Of a DNA stretch of 22,474 nt, positions 2,553-17,327 are shown one piece after another. Positions within the stretch are counted from its first letter, which is position 1. Every line of letters begins with the position of its first letter. The notes under the pieces were generated by a model that saw only the letters and a program-made list of their open reading frames with translations, was not told the origin of the DNA and ran no database searches. The position numbers and the translations under genes were made by a program. Origin of the DNA: a virus. The DNA lies in IMG/VR virus record IMGVR_UViG_3300030116_000725, positions 21,952 to 44,425 of that record, one strand, 5' to 3'.

Positions 2553-2716
2553 TGAAGAAAAAAGTAAAAGCACCTGCCGGGTATCACTGGATGAAGTCAG
2601 GCAGAGGATTAAAGCTAATGAAGCATTCTGGTAAGTTTAAACCACATAAGGGCGCTAGTCTTACTGCAGATTTTGCAGTGCAAATGAAACATTCTAAACC
2701 AAGAAAGAAAAAGTAA
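2552..2716 (+). CDS. 54-residue basic protein
   Basis: ATG at 2552 overlaps the stop of the preceding gene (TAATG), and its own TAA at 2714-2716 overlaps the next ATG. The two overlaps and the composition argue that this short frame is real. It carries 15 Lys and 2 Arg against one acidic residue. It begins MKKKVKAPAGYHWMKSGRG, has several His (YHW, KHSGKF, KPHKG, MKHS), and ends KPRKKK. The central 'GYHWM..G..LM' pattern is reminiscent of short basic proteins seen in marine phage genomes. Function unknown; nucleic-acid binding is plausible. Confidence 0.65.
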   Translation: MKKKVKAPAGYHWMKSGRGLKLMKHSGKFKPHKGASLTADFAVQMKHSKPRKKK

Positions 2717-3096
2717 TGGCTACAGCTAAAAAGAAAGACCCAAAGAAGTGGGCTAGGGCAAAGGCAAGAGCTAGAGCTAAGATGGGTGGACACTCAGCTA
2801 GAGCTATGCAACTTGCAGTTAAGTACTATAAGCAAGCTGGTGGAAGATATTCTGGAAAGAAAAGTTCTGGTAATAAACTTTCTAAATGGTCAAAACAAAA
2901 GTGGGATTATGTCAGTAAGGGAGATAAGAAAAAACCGAAAAGAAAAAGAGGGCGTTACTTACCTGAATCAGTTAGGAAAAGTCTCAGTCCCGGTCAAAAA
3001 AGTGCTACAAACAGAGCAAAAAGAAAAGCCTCTGCTTCAGGAAGAAGAAAGGCTAAATATAGTAAATCAATAGCAAGGAAGGTTCGCAATGCCTAG
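2716..3096 (+). CDS. Basic protein resembling the DUF5872 family
   Basis: 126 residues with 29 Lys and 15 Arg against 4 acidic residues. The N-terminal third is Ala/Lys/Arg-rich (KWARAKARARAKMGG). Residues about 47-105 follow a pattern I recognise from DUF5872 proteins: '..GNKLSKWSKQKWDYVS', then 'GRYLPESVRKSLSP' and 'SATNRAKRKASASG'. The family is of unknown function and occurs in phages and in some eukaryotic viruses and algae. The start overlaps the previous stop (TAATG), and the end overlaps the endolysin start by 8 bases. Together with the two genes before it, it forms a histone-like basic trio. DNA compaction or binding is an inference from composition alone. Confidence 0.7.
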   Translation: MATAKKKDPKKWARAKARARAKMGGHSARAMQLAVKYYKQAGGRYSGKKSSGNKLSKWSKQKWDYVSKGDKKKPKRKRGRYLPESVRKSLSPGQKSATNRAKRKASASGRRKAKYSKSIARKVRNA

Positions 3097-7155: not shown

Positions 7156-8199
7156 ATGCAGTATAATACTATAAGACAATATCAAGAAGGCGGCTTAAGA
7201 AGAAGGGCTAGGAGCTTACTTAGTAGACTTAATATAGGTAGAGAGCTTAAGAAGGAACAAGAACGAGCCGCTAAGGGAGCTAAGAAGATGAGCTTGGAAA
7301 AAGGATTAGGTTCCTTAGTCACATTTGGATTGACAAAACTTCTTCCAACGGCATTGACAACCTTAGTTCCCGGTGTTGGTGCTATTGGAACTGCGGGTTT
7401 AAAAGCCCTCGGTACTGGAGCTAGTAGATATCTAGGTGAAACTATTGGAGACTTACTAGTAAAAGACCCTAAACTTGAATCAAAGTCAGGATATCTAAAA
7501 ACAAATGTTTACGATGAACTATCTAGGGTTAAAAGAGAAGATAGAGATAAAAGACTTGGAAGAGCTTTAGGAGCTGGTGCGAGTACTGCTTTAATTGACC
7601 TTGCTTCATCTGGGTTTAAATCTTTAATTGATGCTAGAAAATCAAGAGAAGTTGCAGACCCAGCTCTTAAACAAACTATGGGTTTTGATATTGAAACACC
7701 AGAGTTAGGAATACAAAGAAGCTTAGGTGAACAAGACTTTTTAACATCTGGGCCACTAACAGGAAGTGAAGCTTCGTTATCAGATGCTATACCATCAGAC
7801 CTATCAACAGAGTCATCTAGGGCTATATTATCAGATGCATCTTCTATATCAAGTCAAGCACCAGAAGCTCAATTTGATTTAAGGTCTGCAGATTTAGATA
7901 TGTCACCTGAGTTTGTGCAAGCACCTTCTTTAATAGGTGAAGAGTATGCACTTGCTAGAGATTCTTTAAATACTCAAAGAGAAATGGAAGAACTTTCTAG
8001 AAACTTAGGTGTAAGCATTGCAAGACAGGAGGGTAGACTAGGTCAAGTTTTAGGAAATCAAAATATAAGACGACAAGGTTTAATGGATTTAGGTATAGGT
8101 AGTGTATCCCCAGTTAGTCCTTACTTTAATTTACCAATGAGAAGATATGCAGGCGGTGGGTTATTTAATCCTATGAAAACAGGAAGGAGGATATTCTAA
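7156..8199 (+). CDS. Putative internal virion (ejection) protein with Gly/Ala-rich hydrophobic region
   Basis: 347 residues; ATG at 7156 after AGGTAAAGGT, four bases beyond the previous stop. The basic N-terminus holds a YQEGGL motif (residues 9-14) then RRRARSLLSRLNIGRELKK. Residues about 50-101 are hydrophobic and rich in Gly/Ala/Thr (GLGSLVTFGLTKLLPTALTT, then VPGVGAIGTAGLKALGTGAS), as in virion proteins that insert into or cross membranes during DNA ejection. The middle (about 170-260) is Ser/Asp-rich and probably disordered. The C-terminus has a second motif, YAGGGLFNPM (331-340). The neighbouring genes and the composition fit podovirus internal virion proteins. I do not recognise a named family. 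Confidence 0.55.
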   Translation: MQYNTIRQYQEGGLRRRARSLLSRLNIGRELKKEQERAAKGAKKMSLEKGLGSLVTFGLTKLLPTALTTLVPGVGAIGTAGLKALGTGASRYLGETIGDLLVKDPKLESKSGYLKTNVYDELSRVKREDRDKRLGRALGAGASTALIDLASSGFKSLIDARKSREVADPALKQTMGFDIETPELGIQRSLGEQDFLTSGPLTGSEASLSDAIPSDLSTESSRAILSDASSISSQAPEAQFDLRSADLDMSPEFVQAPSLIGEEYALARDSLNTQREMEELSRNLGVSIARQEGRLGQVLGNQNIRRQGLMDLGIGSVSPVSPYFNLPMRRYAGGGLFNPMKTGRRIF

Positions 8200-9818
8200 T
8201 GGCTCAATCAGATAACATACCAGCAATGCTACAGTCAGGAGAATATGTAGTTCGCAAAGAAGCGGTAGAAAAATTAGGAAAAGATACTATGGATATGATA
8301 AACAATGTAGATAGATTAGGATATATGGGTGGAGGTCTTGTTCCTCAGGGAGAACACGGTCACTCAGCTATAGACGAATTACTAGCTTTAAACACCTTGG
8401 TAAATCAAAGAAGCGTTGATATGACTAGGGACTCAGCTATGATGAATAAAGGTGGAAAAGCATTAAAGAAAGCACCTGAAGGTAATAAAGGTTTAATGAA
8501 GCTACCGCAAGAAGTTAGGAATCGTATGGGGTATATGAAAGAAGGTGGGGAAGTTCAAGACAATACAGCAACAAATATAATGAATCTACTTGCACTAAAT
8601 GATATAATTGAAAGAGCTCCTCAGTATTCAATGTTTGATGCAGATTCTCGTGGAGGTGTTCTTTCAGACGAAGACATTCTTGGGATATCTGAAGGCAATT
8701 TCATGCCAGCCGCTGGTATATTAGGCAAGGGATATGCTGGAATTTTTGGTTCTGGGGATGTTTCATTATCTAAAATAAAAAAATTATTAATGTCTGATAG
8801 GTTTAATCGAGGCGGAGAAGGGAGTATGCTTAGGCAATTATCAAAGCAAAGTCCAACTATGTCAGATTTTGTGAGAAATGTGTCTAGAACAGGGAATGAA
8901 GAACTTGCAGATGAATATGCTAGAAAATTAATTAAAGAAGCTAGAGATGTATATAAAAAAGCATACCAAGAAGGTGGTATGATGGATAACTATATGTATG
9001 GAGGTATGCCTAAAAAGAAGAAGAAAAAAGGATACGAAGACGGTGGCTCTGTAGGTGTGGTTAATGAAATAGGAAAAGCTAGAAAGATGTTTAGTGATAT
9101 AGATGACCTACTAGCAACAGCCGCTTTGATGGATAATTATACCTTTGGCCCAATGCAAAGAAAAGCACTAAGGTCTATGCGTGAAGCTGATATGGTAGAC
9201 CCTAAAGATACTATGGAGCAAGTAATGATGTTGCTTAAAGCTCGTGAACAAAATAAAATACCATCGTTTGAAAAGCGTAAAAGTTATATAATGGGAGGCA
9301 GTGCAGGAGGAGGTTCTCAAACTGGATTTGACCAGCCAAGCACTAGTGATTATTTTCAAGAAATATATGAAGCATTTGGGTTTATACCATCAGATGCTGG
9401 TATAAGAGAAGACTTTGAAAAAAGATTTGCATATGACCCAACTAAAGCTGTAGGGGACATAGCATCATTAACAGAAGAAGCAACTGGCCAATTAGGAAGC
9501 ATTGTACAACAATCTCAACAAGTAGGTGGTGGTTTCGAAGGATTCGGAGAAAGGCAAAGAGGTATTGAGGAAGCTAGGTCTGATTTATATAGGATGGTAG
9601 AGGAAGGTGCGGAAGGAATTACTGAAGAATCTAAATTAGCCCAACAAGAAGAAGCTATACTAGACTTAGCAAGAAGAGAAGAGGCTGGAGCTGAGTTTGA
9701 CACAATGAAACCCGGCCCACCCGATATGCCAAGTGGATTTTTAAGAGCCGGAAGTAGAAGAAATATGGCTGATGGCGTATATATGTGGACAGGAAGTAGG
9801 TGGATGGGGCCAGCATAA
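8199..9818 (+). CDS. Putative internal virion protein with repeated GG/LLALN units
   Basis: 539 residues. The start is supported by a strong GGAAGGAGG site upstream and by overlap with the previous stop. Residues 6-38 (NIPAMLQSGEYVVRK, then EAVEKLGKDTMDMINN) match a short motif often found near the ends of tape-measure and other virion proteins ('P.ML..GE.V....AV...G'). Three diverged units follow: GYMGGGLV...IDELLALN (41-65), GYMKEGGEV...NLLALN (111-134) and GYEDGGSV...IDDLLATA (278-308). More GG motifs occur at 256-261, 265-270 and 362-368, and a poly-Lys stretch at 272-277. The C-terminus ends VYMWTGSRWMGPA. No enzyme motif is seen. It is probably packaged in the virion and ejected with DNA. 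Confidence 0.55.
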   Translation: MAQSDNIPAMLQSGEYVVRKEAVEKLGKDTMDMINNVDRLGYMGGGLVPQGEHGHSAIDELLALNTLVNQRSVDMTRDSAMMNKGGKALKKAPEGNKGLMKLPQEVRNRMGYMKEGGEVQDNTATNIMNLLALNDIIERAPQYSMFDADSRGGVLSDEDILGISEGNFMPAAGILGKGYAGIFGSGDVSLSKIKKLLMSDRFNRGGEGSMLRQLSKQSPTMSDFVRNVSRTGNEELADEYARKLIKEARDVYKKAYQEGGMMDNYMYGGMPKKKKKKGYEDGGSVGVVNEIGKARKMFSDIDDLLATAALMDNYTFGPMQRKALRSMREADMVDPKDTMEQVMMLLKAREQNKIPSFEKRKSYIMGGSAGGGSQTGFDQPSTSDYFQEIYEAFGFIPSDAGIREDFEKRFAYDPTKAVGDIASLTEEATGQLGSIVQQSQQVGGGFEGFGERQRGIEEARSDLYRMVEEGAEGITEESKLAQQEEAILDLARREEAGAEFDTMKPGPPDMPSGFLRAGSRRNMADGVYMWTGSRWMGPA

Positions 9819-11434: not shown

Positions 11435-14400
11435 ATGCCACAATTTAATCCAAATATGACAGTAGAACAGCTAGTCAATGACTTTAGAGCTATTGACCCT
11501 AGTTATAATACAATGAGTGATGAGTTAGCTTATAAAGTTATAACAAGAAAGTTTCCTCAGTATAAGTTAGAATCTCAACAGTCAGAGTATAACCCTAATG
11601 ATGAGAGTGGTATAATAGACCAGTTAGGTACTGTGTGGAAAGATGGATACAATAGGTCTTTACAAGGTATGGCTGAGGCTATAGCTACTGGTAAGGAACA
11701 AGTATATGACTTAGGTGATTACCATCCGGGTATAGTTGCGGATATAGCGGCTGGCGTAGCATCATTCTTTACACCACTAGACTTTGCAACCACTGTAGCA
11801 GGTGGTGGTATAGGAGGTATACTAGCTAAAGCTGGTGGTAAACAAACATTAAAGAAGTTTGTATTTAAGAAGCTAGTAAATAATAATGTATCTAGAAAGG
11901 TTGCGGCTACTACGGCTAACAAAGCACTTGATTATGCAGTTAAATCTGGTACTGGTGCTGGTGCATTAGGTCTATACTCAGGTGCTGGAGAGGCATTAAA
12001 TGAATACCTATCAGATGGTACTATAACTCCGGGCAAAGTAGTAAAGGCTGGTGCTAAGGGTTCTGTTTTAGGTGGTATGACAGGACTTACAAATGTATTC
12101 TTAACAGATAAGGGCATTGGTGTATTAGGTAGAACTTTTGCAGAGGTTGGTCAGTTTGGTACTGCGGCTCCATTACTAGAAGGTAGAGCACCTACACCTG
12201 AAGACTGGATTCATGCAGGCGGTATGGTACTAGGTATTAAGGGTGTTAATAAGGCGGCTACTAAAGGGTTTGAACAGCTAAGTAAGTTAAAGAAGTATGT
12301 TGTTGAACCAGAGATATCTAAGCAACCTGTACCAGAAGGTTTTGATATAACGGCAGAAGCCAGAGAAACAGGCAGAAGAAGTTATGCTCAAGAGTTGTAC
12401 GATAATATATATACAGATAGAAAAGGTAATAGACAAGCCAAGATACTTAGCTTTGATAAAGACAATGTTCAGTTGAAGTTTTTAGATACCAATGAAGTTT
12501 CTTTAGTTAGTAGAGATATATTCTCAACTTATTATAGGAAGGGAGAAAATGTAAATATATCTCCCAAAGAGTTAAGAGGTAAAAGAGAAAATGAAATTAG
12601 ACAACTAGAAAAAGAACTAGGTCATTCTGATAAAGTAAAAGAAACTAATAGAGGTTTGCAAAGAGCTGATAAAAGTGGAGAGAAGCTACCAAAGAGTTTA
12701 AAAGACCAGACAAATGATGAGCTTGTAAACTTAAGAGATAAGTTAACTGTTGAAAAGTATACTAAAAAAGCATTGGAAGATATGCAAAAGAATGGTATAG
12801 ATATGCAGAAGACTAGATTTAGTTTATTCTTAGATGATATGCTACCTGCTCCTGCTAATAAATTACTAGATGTTTTTAGACCAGCAAGAAATCAAGGTAG
12901 TGTAAGTCCAGTAAGGAGAAGGTATATCGCTAAGGTTGATAAGTTTGTAGTAGACCAAAGAAGAACCCTATCAGAGACATATGACCTTATGTCTCAGGCT
13001 GGACTAAACGCTGAGAAACCAACTAAGAAACAAGTCAGGAACTTAGCTAGGGCTATGAAGATGAATGAGTCTGAAGTTTCTAAAAGATATTGGGAACTTT
13101 TATCTGACGCTGTTGAACAAGGAATAAACACTCCAGAGACTATAGCCTATAAACAAATATCTAATTTTCTTTTTAATAGAGCTCGTCAATCTGGAGTTGA
13201 TGTTGGATATATAGAGAATTATATACCTAGAATGCTTAAGAAGGGTCTAGCTGAAAAGGTATTTGCTGATATATATAAAATATCAGAGATGGTGTCAAAA
13301 GAGTCAGTTAAGAAAGGTGAAGAAATGTTAGTCAAAGATTTAAAAAGTGACTACATAGATTTGATAATACAAGCAATGAATAATCCAGAAGCTTTTGCTA
13401 GTGGTAGAGGTGGAGAAGCTAGGTTTTTAAATAGGATTATAAAGAAAGCTATACCATCTTTATCTAAAGAAACTAGGGAAGCATATGAATCAATACTACA
13501 AACAGTAAGAAAAAGCGAAGGAGTTGAAGAGCTTAGCCCTTTCAAAGCTATGTCATTGATGGGTAGACTTACCTACGGTGAAGTATTCAAGGAGTATGGA
13601 AACCTAACAAAGAAAAGGACTTATGAATTACCATCAAAATTTTACGAAAGAGATATAAGACAATTACTAGGAACCTATTCATCTAATGTTGCTAGAGCTT
13701 CATCAGAAGCAAAGAACTTTGGTAAGAAGGGGTCAATATATACAGAGCTACTCAACAATGCTCCAGCTTCAGATTTACCTATAATAATGGAGTTACATAA
13801 TCACGTAATGGGCTCTATAGGTTATAATAGAAGATATAATCTAAATCCCGGAATCAAAGACTTTATGCAGAAGGTTATGGAGTGGGAGACATCTACTAAG
13901 ATTGCACTAGGTACTGCAACAGCTATGAACTTATCACAGTTTGCAATATCTTCTGCTTTATCTGCAGGGTACTGGAGATTTACCAAAGGTGCATATAACT
14001 ATATGACTAATAAAGATTTTAGAAAGCAAGTAGATGCATCTGGTGGTAACTTATATAAATACATAAACGAGATGATGGGCATATCACAACAGAGTGATAT
14101 ATCTAAGAGTATTGTAGGTAGACTAACTGACGTATCTCAGTTCAATAGAATAAACTCTATCAACAATATATTAGCGGCCGCAACAGCTAGGGTTTTAGTA
14201 GATGACTTGGTAGCTATATCAATAGGTAAAAGAGGTATAGGTTTAGGTAGGATAGGTTCAAAGAAGTGGGCTAACAATACACTACAGAAGATGGGTATAG
14301 ACCCAGCTCAAATAAAAGATGGTCAATTACCTAGGTCTACAGTTACCAATGCGATAGGTAGATTTGCAGTTAAGTCTCAGTTGCAGAAAGACATACTGTC

Positions 14401-15160
14401 AGACCCACTAATACTAAATAGACCATCAGCTAAACCGTTTCTACAGTTTAAATCATTTGGACTTAGGCAGTATAATTTTATAATGGATACACTAAAGTTT
14501 GATTTAGCTCAGGGTAACTTTATGCCTATGCTTAGATTAGCCGCAGGTGGTATGGCTACTGGTGCTTTAGCTATTAAAGCAAAAGAACTTATGAAGCAAC
14601 TAGCATCTGGTGAAAAAGCATATGACCCTGCTACATTCTTCGAAGCAGATGCTAAAGAGATAGTAGAAAACATAGCCGCAATAGGAGCCTTTGGTTTCTT
14701 GGGTGACTTTCTAATGGCTGGGTTAGAAGAAGGGAGAAGTGTTACTAGAGCACTAGCATTCTTCGCATCACCACCTTTTATGTCAGATGTATCTGAGTTG
14801 TTTAAGTTTATGGGGGCATTAGAAAGAGACTATAAGAACTACCAAGGAGACTTTATAAGAAGAGTTCCATCTAGAGCATTGAGAATGACTGGTAGTCCTC
14901 TATTAAAAGACTTTGCAAAACGATTAGAAACAACAGGTCTAAAGCAAAGTAGAATAGAGTTCCTTAGAGGTAGGAGAAAGTCTGCTATATTGGATACTAT
15001 AATAAAATCTGAAACACCAGAAGCATATCAACAAGCACTAGAGGATATGCGTAACTGGAATAGTACTTACCCTATGTACCCTATACTAGTAACAGACATA
15101 GACTACAAAGCTGTAATAAAAAGAAAAATGCAGAAACATAAGAAGAGAGCTGATGTATAA
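11435..15160 (+). CDS. Large internal virion / ejection protein
   Basis: 1241 residues, the longest protein here. ATG at 11435 lacks a clear Shine-Dalgarno site. The N-terminus (TVEQLVNDFRAIDPSYNTMS) looks like a small helical domain. Residues about 99-134 are hydrophobic and Gly/Ala-rich (GIVADIAAGVASFFTPLDF, then TTVAGGGIGGILAKAGG), with further Gly-rich hydrophobic stretches to about 265. The centre is charged and helical. Residues about 820-860 (TKIALGTATAMNLSQFAISS) resemble a helix conserved in large phage virion and polyvalent proteins, and two more hydrophobic stretches occur near 1030-1045 and 1075-1097. No lytic transglycosylase motif is visible. It probably forms part of the channel through which DNA enters the host. 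The stop overlaps the next start (TAATG). Confidence 0.6.
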   Translation: MPQFNPNMTVEQLVNDFRAIDPSYNTMSDELAYKVITRKFPQYKLESQQSEYNPNDESGIIDQLGTVWKDGYNRSLQGMAEAIATGKEQVYDLGDYHPGIVADIAAGVASFFTPLDFATTVAGGGIGGILAKAGGKQTLKKFVFKKLVNNNVSRKVAATTANKALDYAVKSGTGAGALGLYSGAGEALNEYLSDGTITPGKVVKAGAKGSVLGGMTGLTNVFLTDKGIGVLGRTFAEVGQFGTAAPLLEGRAPTPEDWIHAGGMVLGIKGVNKAATKGFEQLSKLKKYVVEPEISKQPVPEGFDITAEARETGRRSYAQELYDNIYTDRKGNRQAKILSFDKDNVQLKFLDTNEVSLVSRDIFSTYYRKGENVNISPKELRGKRENEIRQLEKELGHSDKVKETNRGLQRADKSGEKLPKSLKDQTNDELVNLRDKLTVEKYTKKALEDMQKNGIDMQKTRFSLFLDDMLPAPANKLLDVFRPARNQGSVSPVRRRYIAKVDKFVVDQRRTLSETYDLMSQAGLNAEKPTKKQVRNLARAMKMNESEVSKRYWELLSDAVEQGINTPETIAYKQISNFLFNRARQSGVDVGYIENYIPRMLKKGLAEKVFADIYKISEMVSKESVKKGEEMLVKDLKSDYIDLIIQAMNNPEAFASGRGGEARFLNRIIKKAIPSLSKETREAYESILQTVRKSEGVEELSPFKAMSLMGRLTYGEVFKEYGNLTKKRTYELPSKFYERDIRQLLGTYSSNVARASSEAKNFGKKGSIYTELLNNAPASDLPIIMELHNHVMGSIGYNRRYNLNPGIKDFMQKVMEWETSTKIALGTATAMNLSQFAISSALSAGYWRFTKGAYNYMTNKDFRKQVDASGGNLYKYINEMMGISQQSDISKSIVGRLTDVSQFNRINSINNILAAATARVLVDDLVAISIGKRGIGLGRIGSKKWANNTLQKMGIDPAQIKDGQLPRSTVTNAIGRFAVKSQLQKDILSDPLILNRPSAKPFLQFKSFGLRQYNFIMDTLKFDLAQGNFMPMLRLAAGGMATGALAIKAKELMKQLASGEKAYDPATFFEADAKEIVENIAAIGAFGFLGDFLMAGLEEGRSVTRALAFFASPPFMSDVSELFKFMGALERDYKNYQGDFIRRVPSRALRMTGSPLLKDFAKRLETTGLKQSRIEFLRGRRKSAILDTIIKSETPEAYQQALEDMRNWNSTYPMYPILVTDIDYKAVIKRKMQKHKKRADV

Positions 15161-15999
15161 TGCCTAGAACTGTGAATGAATACTTCCAACCTGCATCTAC
15201 AGGTGTACATAATAATATAGACAACCTAATACTTGATGCTGAACTAGATAAACTTGCACAAACTGGTAGTATGCGTGCAGATACTAGACCTCAGTATATA
15301 GGAGGAGTAGACCCTATTGTAGAGAACATAGCAATGGGGCCACTACTTACATTGAAAAGTCTTGGCAGTGTAGGTAAGAAAATTCTAGAGAAAACTGGTC
15401 TACGTAACCCAGTATCTCATTTCACATTTGGTCAAAACGCATCCAGTATATTAAGACAAGGAAAGATTCAAGGTTTTCCAGAAGTTTCAGTTACTAGAGA
15501 CCCTATGTTTTCTAATAGACCTCACGGTGCTATAGGCACAGATGTTAGATTTATCTTAGATAGAGATGAGCTAGTTAAAAAAGGTTTTCCTATGAAGCCT
15601 ATAGCTGTTTCTAATTATAAAAAAACTATTAATGATTATGGTAGGCCACCAATAACACTTGAGAATTATAAAAAAATTCATGGGTATTATCCAGACCAAA
15701 TGAATCCTAGATTTGAGTTTGAAGAAAGAGTAATGCGTAATATACCCATTGAAAATGTTAAACTTATAGATATATTACAACTACCATTAGGCGAATCTGA
15801 TTTCTCTCCAAATATGTTAAAGTTATTAGGACAATTATCTAGAACAAACATACCTATTATAAAAAGTAATTTAGTAAAAAACAGACTTAATAAAATGCCT
15901 ATAGACAAAGTAGATACATTTTCAGATGTATATAAATTAATGAATACACCCACCTATAAAACAAATCCATTTAAGGTTTCTGACTATTACTCATTTTAA
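15160..15999 (+). CDS. Candidate ADP-ribosyltransferase-fold protein, possibly co-ejected
   Basis: 279 residues, coupled to the large ejection protein by TAATG and last in the virion operon. Residues 1-75 are a non-enzymatic leader. Residues about 84-206 show, in order: VSHFTFGQNASSILRQGKI with His87, which recalls the 'H.T....SIL..GL' start of DarT/RNA-phosphotransferase-like and other ART folds; VSVTRDPMF with Ser110-Thr112-Arg113; the strand VRFILDRDELV; and FEFEERVMRNIPIENVKLI with a Glu186-x-Glu188-Glu189 cluster at the place of the catalytic Glu. Such ART domains in phages modify host proteins or nucleic acids. Catalysis is not proven; the residues about 207-279 are unrecognised. The second half is more AT-rich than its neighbours. 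Its 3' end overlaps the convergent helicase gene. Confidence 0.5.
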   Translation: MPRTVNEYFQPASTGVHNNIDNLILDAELDKLAQTGSMRADTRPQYIGGVDPIVENIAMGPLLTLKSLGSVGKKILEKTGLRNPVSHFTFGQNASSILRQGKIQGFPEVSVTRDPMFSNRPHGAIGTDVRFILDRDELVKKGFPMKPIAVSNYKKTINDYGRPPITLENYKKIHGYYPDQMNPRFEFEERVMRNIPIENVKLIDILQLPLGESDFSPNMLKLLGQLSRTNIPIIKSNLVKNRLNKMPIDKVDTFSDVYKLMNTPTYKTNPFKVSDYYSF

Positions 16000-17327
16000 A
16001 AAGGTTTAGGTGTACCGCCTACGCTATCTCCTCTACTCTTTGCTAGTTCTACTGCCTCAGATTCTGTATTAGTAACTAAACAACTGTTACCGTGATACCC
16101 TACCTCACAAGAGTTAGTACTACCATATCTATTCTTAGCTACTATAAGCTCTAGAAAACAATCACTATTGCCATCATCTCCATACCTTGACACCCAAGGG
16201 TAGTGTGTAAATACTACTATCTCTGCATCTTGTTCTAAGTTACCAGACTCTGCCAAGTCAGACAGCCTAGGTACTCTATCGTTTCTATGCTCCATATTCC
16301 TATTCATCTGTGATACTAGTATAACAGACATATCTTGTGCCTTAGCCAACCACTTATAACTACGACTAACATCACCTATCTTAAGACGTAGGTCTCTTCT
16401 ATCGTGAGCAGGGTGCTCAATCAATCCTATATGGTCATCAATAACTACGTCAGGACTTATGGCTTTTATCTCACGAAACGTACCCTCTATATCTCTAACG
16501 TCATCAAACATAAATAGCTTACCTCCGTACACTTCTGATATCTTATCAGATACATCGGCTAGTTCTATCTGGTCTATGCCTACATTATTCCTAAGGTTTC
16601 TATACTGTAAAGCTCTTGACTCCATAGCAATAAACTTCTTCATCATCTCCGTGTTAGGCATCTCTCTATTAAACATAGCAACCTTCAATCCTCTATGTAC
16701 TAGGTTTCTAGCTATGTTAGCAGACACAGTAGTCTTTGCATTACCGGGTCTACCTGCAACTATAGTAATCTCACCTCTTGTCATACCAGTAATAACTCTA
16801 TCTAGAGTACCTATACCAGTAGGTATTTGTGTGGTAGAATTTATTATAGACTCTTTTGTATCAACCAATAGAGAGTCTATGTCAAATGTTTGATTAGGTT
16901 GTAGCTTTATAATATTACCAATAGTAGTATGTGCATCCTCTAGTAAGTTGCCAGTCTCTAAGGATGTATCATTAATACCTTTAGATATATCATTCATCTG
17001 TACAAATAATATTCTCCTAAGGTAGTAAGAGTGTAACCTCTTAGCATACTCAACAGCATTTGCAGGGGATGTAACCAAGTCTAGAAATCCTAGTATCTCA
17101 TATCTATCGTTACCAGAACTTGTAGAACTAACTACCTCTTCACATACAGTTACTGTATCTATCTCCTTGTTTTGTTTATGAAGTTTGTCTAGTGCTCTCC
17201 AAACCTTCTGATTAAATGATGAATAGAAATAATCATCCTCAGGTATATACTGCCTTACAGAATCTATGTACTTACTATCTGTTATTAAGCAACCTAGTAA
17301 GGCTTTCTCTAACTCAATACTCTTCAT
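15996..17327 (-). CDS. dnaB: Replicative DnaB-type DNA helicase
   Basis: 443 residues, normal DnaB length, with GAGGAG before ATG at 17327. Residues 1-100 fit the DnaB N-terminal domain (LEKALLGCLITDSKYID, FNQKVWRALDKL). The RecA-like core has a Walker A segment GRPGNAKTT (192-200), a Walker B VVIDDHIGL (294-302), the sensor VILVSQMNR (335-343, Gln340), SGNLEQDAE (361-369) corresponding to DnaB 'SG.IEQDAD', and KNRYGSTNS (398-406) corresponding to the arginine-finger loop 'K.R.GPT'. It would form the hexameric 5'-3' helicase of the phage fork. The residue before the Walker Lys is Ala rather than Gly. It is the last gene of the minus operon and overlaps the ART-like gene by 4 bases. Confidence 0.93.
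   Translation of the reverse strand: MKSIELEKALLGCLITDSKYIDSVRQYIPEDDYFYSSFNQKVWRALDKLHKQNKEIDTVTVCEEVVSSTSSGNDRYEILGFLDLVTSPANAVEYAKRLHSYYLRRILFVQMNDISKGINDTSLETGNLLEDAHTTIGNIIKLQPNQTFDIDSLLVDTKESIINSTTQIPTGIGTLDRVITGMTRGEITIVAGRPGNAKTTVSANIARNLVHRGLKVAMFNREMPNTEMMKKFIAMESRALQYRNLRNNVGIDQIELADVSDKISEVYGGKLFMFDDVRDIEGTFREIKAISPDVVIDDHIGLIEHPAHDRRDLRLKIGDVSRSYKWLAKAQDMSVILVSQMNRNMEHRNDRVPRLSDLAESGNLEQDAEIVVFTHYPWVSRYGDDGNSDCFLELIVAKNRYGSTNSCEVGYHGNSCLVTNTESEAVELAKSRGDSVGGTPKPF

What the first reader, a model, noticed from the sequence alone, without database searches (positions are those of the whole stretch)
15160..15999. Candidate virion-borne ADP-ribosyltransferase at the end of the ejection-protein operon
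Residues 84-206 present, in order, an HFT...SILRQGK start, an S-x-TRD segment, a VRFILDRDEL strand and an FEFEERV block, which is the order of motifs in ART folds (DarT-like and phage ART families). The gene is translationally coupled to the 1241-residue ejection protein, as if the product were made late and packaged, in the manner of T4 Alt. The long leader (residues 1-75) could be a packaging or targeting segment. I know of no named family it clearly belongs to.
Basis: partly seen in the sequence, partly recalled or inferred. Interest (0 to 1): 0.68.

Follow-up and report, generated by a model that had tools for sequence, protein, structure and literature searches.

The report
Leader-tagged phage ADP-ribosyltransferase with swappable cargo
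This phage gene encodes an enzyme-like protein with the fold of ADP-ribosyltransferases, and its front end is a short tag that related phages attach to several unrelated domains at the same spots among their particle-building genes, as if it were a loading label for proteins delivered into the host.

Summary
The gene at 15160-15999 is real: 279 codons, coupled to the upstream 1241-aa gene by a TAATG overlap, with 52 distinct relatives in uncultivated phages and purifying selection. An AlphaFold model from 48 homologues matches DarT (E 1.3e-4) and yeast Tpt1 (E 2e-3), and no other fold. The predicted catalytic positions H87, T89, S110, T112-R113 and E186/E188/E189 are identical in all 52. No Pfam, NCBIfam or PADLOC model recognises it, and no DarG-like partner lies beside it.

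The larger finding is the leader. About 25-55 N-terminal residues recur in front of several different domains: the ART, a HEPLHG zincin-like domain and several uncharacterised ones. They occupy two slots, before DnaB and before the terminase, both in the late gene module. The ART body is a swapped cassette: 62-74% nucleotide identity between flanks of about 95%. A motif like the leader's also lies in a tape-measure-like late protein family. I read this as a virion-loading tag with interchangeable effectors, comparable in logic to MuF toxins or polyvalent proteins but built on a different leader. Packaging, catalysis and target are untested; the 1241-aa gene's identity as an ejection protein is unproven.

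The parts
15160..15999 (+). 279-aa leader + ART-fold protein, last gene of the rightward late operon
   Evidence: AlphaFold/Foldseek; homologues
15190..15267 (+). Leader core, residues 11-36 (PASTGVHNNIDNLILDAELDKLAQTG), shared by 59 distinct ORFs with different C-terminal domains
15160..15384 (+). Whole leader, residues 1-75; low-confidence in the model up to residue 60, where only helices at 15-35 and 52-58 are predicted
15403..15867 (+). ART-fold domain, residues 82-236
15418..15426 (+). H87-F88-T89 on strand 1, proposed NAD+ ribose contact (equivalent of DarT1 H17-F18-T19)
   Evidence: H and T 52/52; DarT1 residues from PMC11543638; register
15487..15510 (+). S110-V-T-R-D-P-M-F117 on strand 2; S110 proposed at the Y position of H-Y-E, as S63 in DarT1
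   Evidence: correspondence inferred by hand
15712..15729 (+). F185-E-F-E-E-R190; E188 proposed catalytic glutamate (E-x7-P spacing as in DarT), E186 at -2
   Evidence: correspondence inferred by hand; model confidence is low at 179-186
11435..15160 (+). 1241-aa late protein of unknown identity, translationally coupled upstream neighbour
15996..17327 (-). DnaB-type helicase, convergent neighbour; marks slot A
   Evidence: DnaB_C 1.3e-49
8199..9818 (+). 539-aa tape-measure-like late protein whose homologues carry the leader-like motif (here GHSAIDELLALNTL, residues 54-67, weak in the window copy)

Best explanation
The protein is a late-made phage effector with two parts. The first 25-75 residues are a portable tag that loads the protein into the assembling particle, probably by docking to the same partner as the tape-measure-like late protein that carries a similar motif. 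Residues 82-236 are an ADP-ribosyltransferase of the DarT/Tpt1 branch: H87 and T89 hold NAD+, S110 sits where other members have a tyrosine, and E188 is the catalytic glutamate. After ejection with the DNA it would transfer ADP-ribose to a host macromolecule early in infection, for takeover or against a defence. The E-x-E arrangement (E186, E188) leans towards a protein target, perhaps arginine, rather than DNA. Shown here: the gene, the fold match, invariant motifs, the shared leader, the two late-module slots and cassette exchange. Inferred: packaging, NAD+ chemistry, target and timing.
For: Model core block pLDDT 75-97, pTM 0.74; Foldseek PDB top hits are DarT structures including the NAD+ complex (E 1.3e-4 to 1.4e-3, probability 1.00) and yeast Tpt1 (E 2.2e-3), nothing else significant. 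Catalytic-position residues 52/52 identical. A profile finds Bacillus phage SP-15 gp261, E 6.2e-5 (pairwise profile P 8.4e-6), and other SP-15 proteins appear in the structural search. Leader shared by 59 ORFs with different domains in two late slots. Leader HMM hits the tape-measure-like family at 12-17 bits against a best of 10.5 in 60 shuffled HMMs. Identity drops to 62-74% over the ART body between 93-97% flanks; leader and domain have different dS in the same pair (L002 1.64 vs 0.50; L025 1.42 vs 0.44), a sign of recombination between them. Published precedent: about 44% of phage ARTs lie in contexts suggesting head packaging (PMC9503650).
Against: No sequence profile reaches DarT significantly (P 0.006, while an unrelated control family gave 0.007). 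TM-scores over the full chain are low (0.3-0.4) because the leader and loops are poorly modelled, and residues 179-186, just before E188, are below pLDDT 50. The 1241-aa neighbour is unidentified. Leader conservation could partly reflect its use as a recombination site. The leader-like motif in the window's own 539-aa protein scores at noise (E 6.6); only its homologues score well. No packaging, NAD+ or target data exist.
Confidence: 0.55

Rival explanations
1. An active ART made late but not packaged. It acts in the infected cell, for example to shut down the host, block superinfecting phages or modify phage products, as T4 ModA/ModB act after synthesis.
For: Late-operon position and coupling fit late action equally well. 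The leader could fold or localise the protein rather than load it.
Against: A leader kept across unrelated domains and two slots, and similar to a motif in a tape-measure-like protein family, is more easily explained by particle loading.
Confidence: 0.27
2. An ART-fold enzyme with another reaction: an RNA 2'-phosphotransferase of the Tpt1/KptA type or an NADase.
For: Yeast Tpt1 is the other fold match, with the highest target-normalised TM-score of the significant hits, 0.63.
Against: Tpt1's signature residues (R-H-R-R, from general knowledge) are not evident, and the E-x-E-E-R block fits transferases. The NADase option is not excluded.
Confidence: 0.1
3. A structural or inactive protein with an ART-derived fold.
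For: The family is confined to structural gene modules.
Against: All catalytic-position residues are invariant in 52 sequences while the rest of the domain diverges.
Confidence: 0.05

Closest known systems
DarT (PF14487, DNA-base ADP-ribosyltransferase toxin of DarTG)
   Same: Best structural match; shared strand 1-helix 1 pattern (HxT..IL..G), R-x-P-M-[LF]-like strand 2 ending, E-x7-P after the catalytic glutamate; serine at the tyrosine position as in DarT1 (PMC11543638).
   Different: No hit to PF14487; no DarG macro-domain neighbour; lies in a phage late operon behind a leader; E instead of Q at -2 of the catalytic glutamate.
T4 Alt (virion-packaged ART)
   Same: Proposed use: head-packaged ART injected with the DNA.
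   Different: Alt is of the R-S-E class (PMC9503650); this reads as H-S-E. No sequence or structural match to Alt was returned.
MuF polymorphic toxins of temperate phages (PMC5576092)
   Same: Constant N-terminal part plus variable C-terminal effector, gene in the packaging module.
   Different: No MuF domain; leader is short; no small immunity ORF follows, the next gene being DnaB or terminase; MuF toxins are tied to temperate phages.
Polyvalent proteins (PMC5512222)
   Same: ART and zincin domains in probable virion cargo; some relatives here carry two or more modules (L007, L009, L040).
   Different: The window protein has a single effector domain, and the shared leader is not a domain I could match there.
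Bacillus phage SP-15 gp261 (AMM45068.1)
   Same: Same HFT, S-x-TRDP, D..L and EAEE pattern.
   Different: No leader; lies beside a protease gene; annotated as hypothetical.

Membership tests
ADP-ribosyltransferase superfamily | ART fold | tested here: met
   DarT and Tpt1 are the only significant PDB matches
ADP-ribosyltransferase superfamily | Conserved active-site triad in order (H-[Y/S]-E or R-S-E) | tested here: met
   H87, S110, E188 are 52/52; assignment of S110 and E188 is by hand
ADP-ribosyltransferase superfamily | NAD+-dependent transfer activity | not testable with these tools
   needs biochemistry
DarT (PF14487) | Match to the family model | tested here: not met
   no hit at E<=10 for P0001, none for 48 members
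DarT (PF14487) | Adjacent DarG macro or NADAR antitoxin | tested here: not met
   neighbours are the 1241-aa ORF and DnaB, or terminase
DarT (PF14487) | Profile-profile similarity | tested here: inconclusive
   P 0.006, above 100 column shuffles but equal to an unrelated control; register at strand 1 is the expected one
Tox-ART-HYD1 (PF15633) | Match above the curated cut-off | tested here: not met
   best 18.9 bits against 25 on L100
MuF polymorphic toxins | MuF domain | tested here: not met
   no MuF model among hits of 48 members
MuF polymorphic toxins | Constant N-terminus with exchangeable C-terminal domains | tested here: met
   (with a different constant part)
Virion-packaged ART (Alt-like use) | Present in virions | not testable with these tools
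   needs proteomics; context only
Virion-packaged ART (Alt-like use) | Encoded among packaging/morphogenesis genes | tested here: met
   slot B is directly before TerL; slot A ends the late operon

The most novel reading that the evidence does not exclude
A so far undescribed phage cargo system: a short HxNIDxLI leader, similar to a motif in a tape-measure-like protein, acts as a portable virion-loading tag, and phages swap whole effector domains (ART, zincin-like peptidase and others) behind it at two fixed slots of the late module.
Probability: 0.42. Interest if true: 0.76.

Novelty: new variant of a known kind. Interest (0 to 1): 0.62.

Why it matters
If the leader is a loading tag, it is a compact signal for placing proteins in a phage particle, and each gene behind it in metagenomes becomes a predicted injected effector. 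The ART family is unnamed, has an H-S-E active site and lies close to DarT, so it would extend ADP-ribosylation to virion cargo of uncultivated phages. The exchange of the effector body between nearly identical flanks suggests strong selection from hosts.

Tried and rejected
Sequence searches that found nothing useful: INPHARED tblastn with P0001, L041 and L100; GTDB contigs (close relatives only); PDB by sequence with A1 and A3. The Crov588 hit is a repeat artefact. Profile-profile against DarT was calibrated with two unrelated families and column shuffles and is not significant alone. PHROG and PADLOC hits of single members at E near 1e-3 are scattered and were not taken as assignments. The 1241-aa protein could not be identified by Pfam, PHROGs, PDB or INPHARED. 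DarTG toxin-antitoxin was considered and rejected for lack of an antitoxin neighbour. The nonleader filter did not remove all leader ORFs; the non-leader hits cited come.

Full report
What is there. The window is the right half of a 44,425-base virus record. The record encodes a terminase (phrog_38), a portal (phrog_156), a head protein (phrog_1328), an amidoligase, an endolysin (phrog_465) and a DnaB helicase; its terminase has only distant relatives among isolated phages. ORF 15160-15999 ends the rightward late operon. It overlaps the 1241-aa gene by one base (TAATG), and its stop overlaps the convergent DnaB gene.

Homologues. Pattern-based scans of IMG/VR returned 69 loci with the domain and 64 with the leader, reducing to 52 distinct ART proteins. 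None was found in INPHARED or, at close range, in GTDB contigs. No Pfam, NCBIfam or PADLOC assignment was obtained; PHROG hits were marginal, scattered and mostly unnamed.

Fold. A 48-sequence alignment gave a model with a confident core (residues 61-150 and 191-270, block pLDDT 75-97; pTM 0.74), a poorly defined leader and weak stretches at 153-160 and 179-186. Foldseek against the PDB returned Thermus DarT (7omx 1.3e-4, 7omw with NAD+ 2.0e-4), DarTG (7yk3) and yeast Tpt1 (7yw4, 2.2e-3); everything else was above 0.4. Viral matches include mostly unnamed phage proteins and iridovirus 422L; a DarT-related ART family in insect viruses is described in PMC9503650. A sequence profile also reached Bacillus phage SP-15 gp261 (E 6.2e-5), which keeps HFT, S-x-TRDP and EAEE.

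Active site. H87, T89, S110, T112, R113, E186, E188, E189 and R190 do not vary in 52 sequences; residue 88 is Y, F or H. In DarT1, H17 and T19 contact the NAD+ ribose, F18 stacks on nicotinamide, S63 replaces the tyrosine of H-Y-E, and E152 is essential (PMC11543638). By spacing to a conserved proline (E-x7-P in the DarT alignment; E188 to P196 here), E188 is the likely catalytic residue. This mapping is inference: profile-profile comparison aligns only strand 1 and helix 1, and its P value (0.006) is matched by an unrelated control, though its score exceeds 100 column shuffles.

Leader and cargo. Among 59 distinct leader-bearing ORFs, 47 carry the ART and the rest carry other domains: a HEPLHG zincin-like domain (4 ORFs), an 'LLEFDVP' domain (3 without the ART; 2 more ORFs have it in tandem with the ART), a helical domain (3), one other (L190), and one truncated ORF. 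Two slots are used. Slot A is between the 1241-aa gene and DnaB (22 ART ORFs). Slot B is before the terminase (25 ART ORFs). The zincin-like domain occurs in both. A 26-residue leader HMM also hits homologues of the window's 539-aa protein, just after its tape-measure-type GEFVIKRES motif, at up to 16.8 bits against a maximum of 10.5 for 60 shuffled HMMs; a separate alignment of that family has H55, I58 and D59 invariant. The window copy itself is weak.

Exchange. Against L008 nucleotide identity is 93-97% over most of the 1.3 kb before the gene and 94-96% just after it, and 62-74% within the ART body. In other pairs the leader and the domain have different synonymous divergence. The leader and body therefore appear to recombine separately, while the body stays under purifying selection.

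Reading. A constant leader before unrelated domains in late-gene slots is most simply a loading or docking tag. MuF toxins (PMC5576092) and polyvalent proteins (PMC5512222) are the known systems with this logic; no MuF domain was found here. Whether the protein is in the particle, whether it uses NAD+ and what it modifies remain open.

Noticed in passing
window 7156-8199 and 8199-9818; L002, L007, L011, L012, L013, L127: A G-[FY]-x-x-G-G motif (GYQNGG, GYEDGGSV, RQYQEGG) recurs in several late proteins, between modules of leader ORFs and at the C-terminus of slot B proteins (GFENGGVVQNLYSMI). Role unknown.
   Followed up: partly
L185, L186, L187, L189: Zincin-like domain with TETLLHEPLHGI behind the same leader, found in both slots.
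   Followed up: partly
L007:9374-10009, L127:2773-3411, L175:2983-3600: Second cargo domain 'LFRGVP...GTWASKS..EA...LLEFDVP' resembles R-S-E type ARTs by eye; structure prediction failed.
   Followed up: partly
L009, L033, L175: Extra module 'KWYLFPTM...KHFGVYDSYDEGMKADRVIH' upstream of the leader.
   Followed up: no
window 2716-3096: Very basic 126-aa protein (phrog_14910, 8.8e-12), just before the endolysin gene.
   Followed up: no
L112:1459-2076: Bacillus phage SP-15 has two paralogues of this ART-like family (195365 and 184800); gp261 is annotated only as hypothetical.
   Followed up: partly
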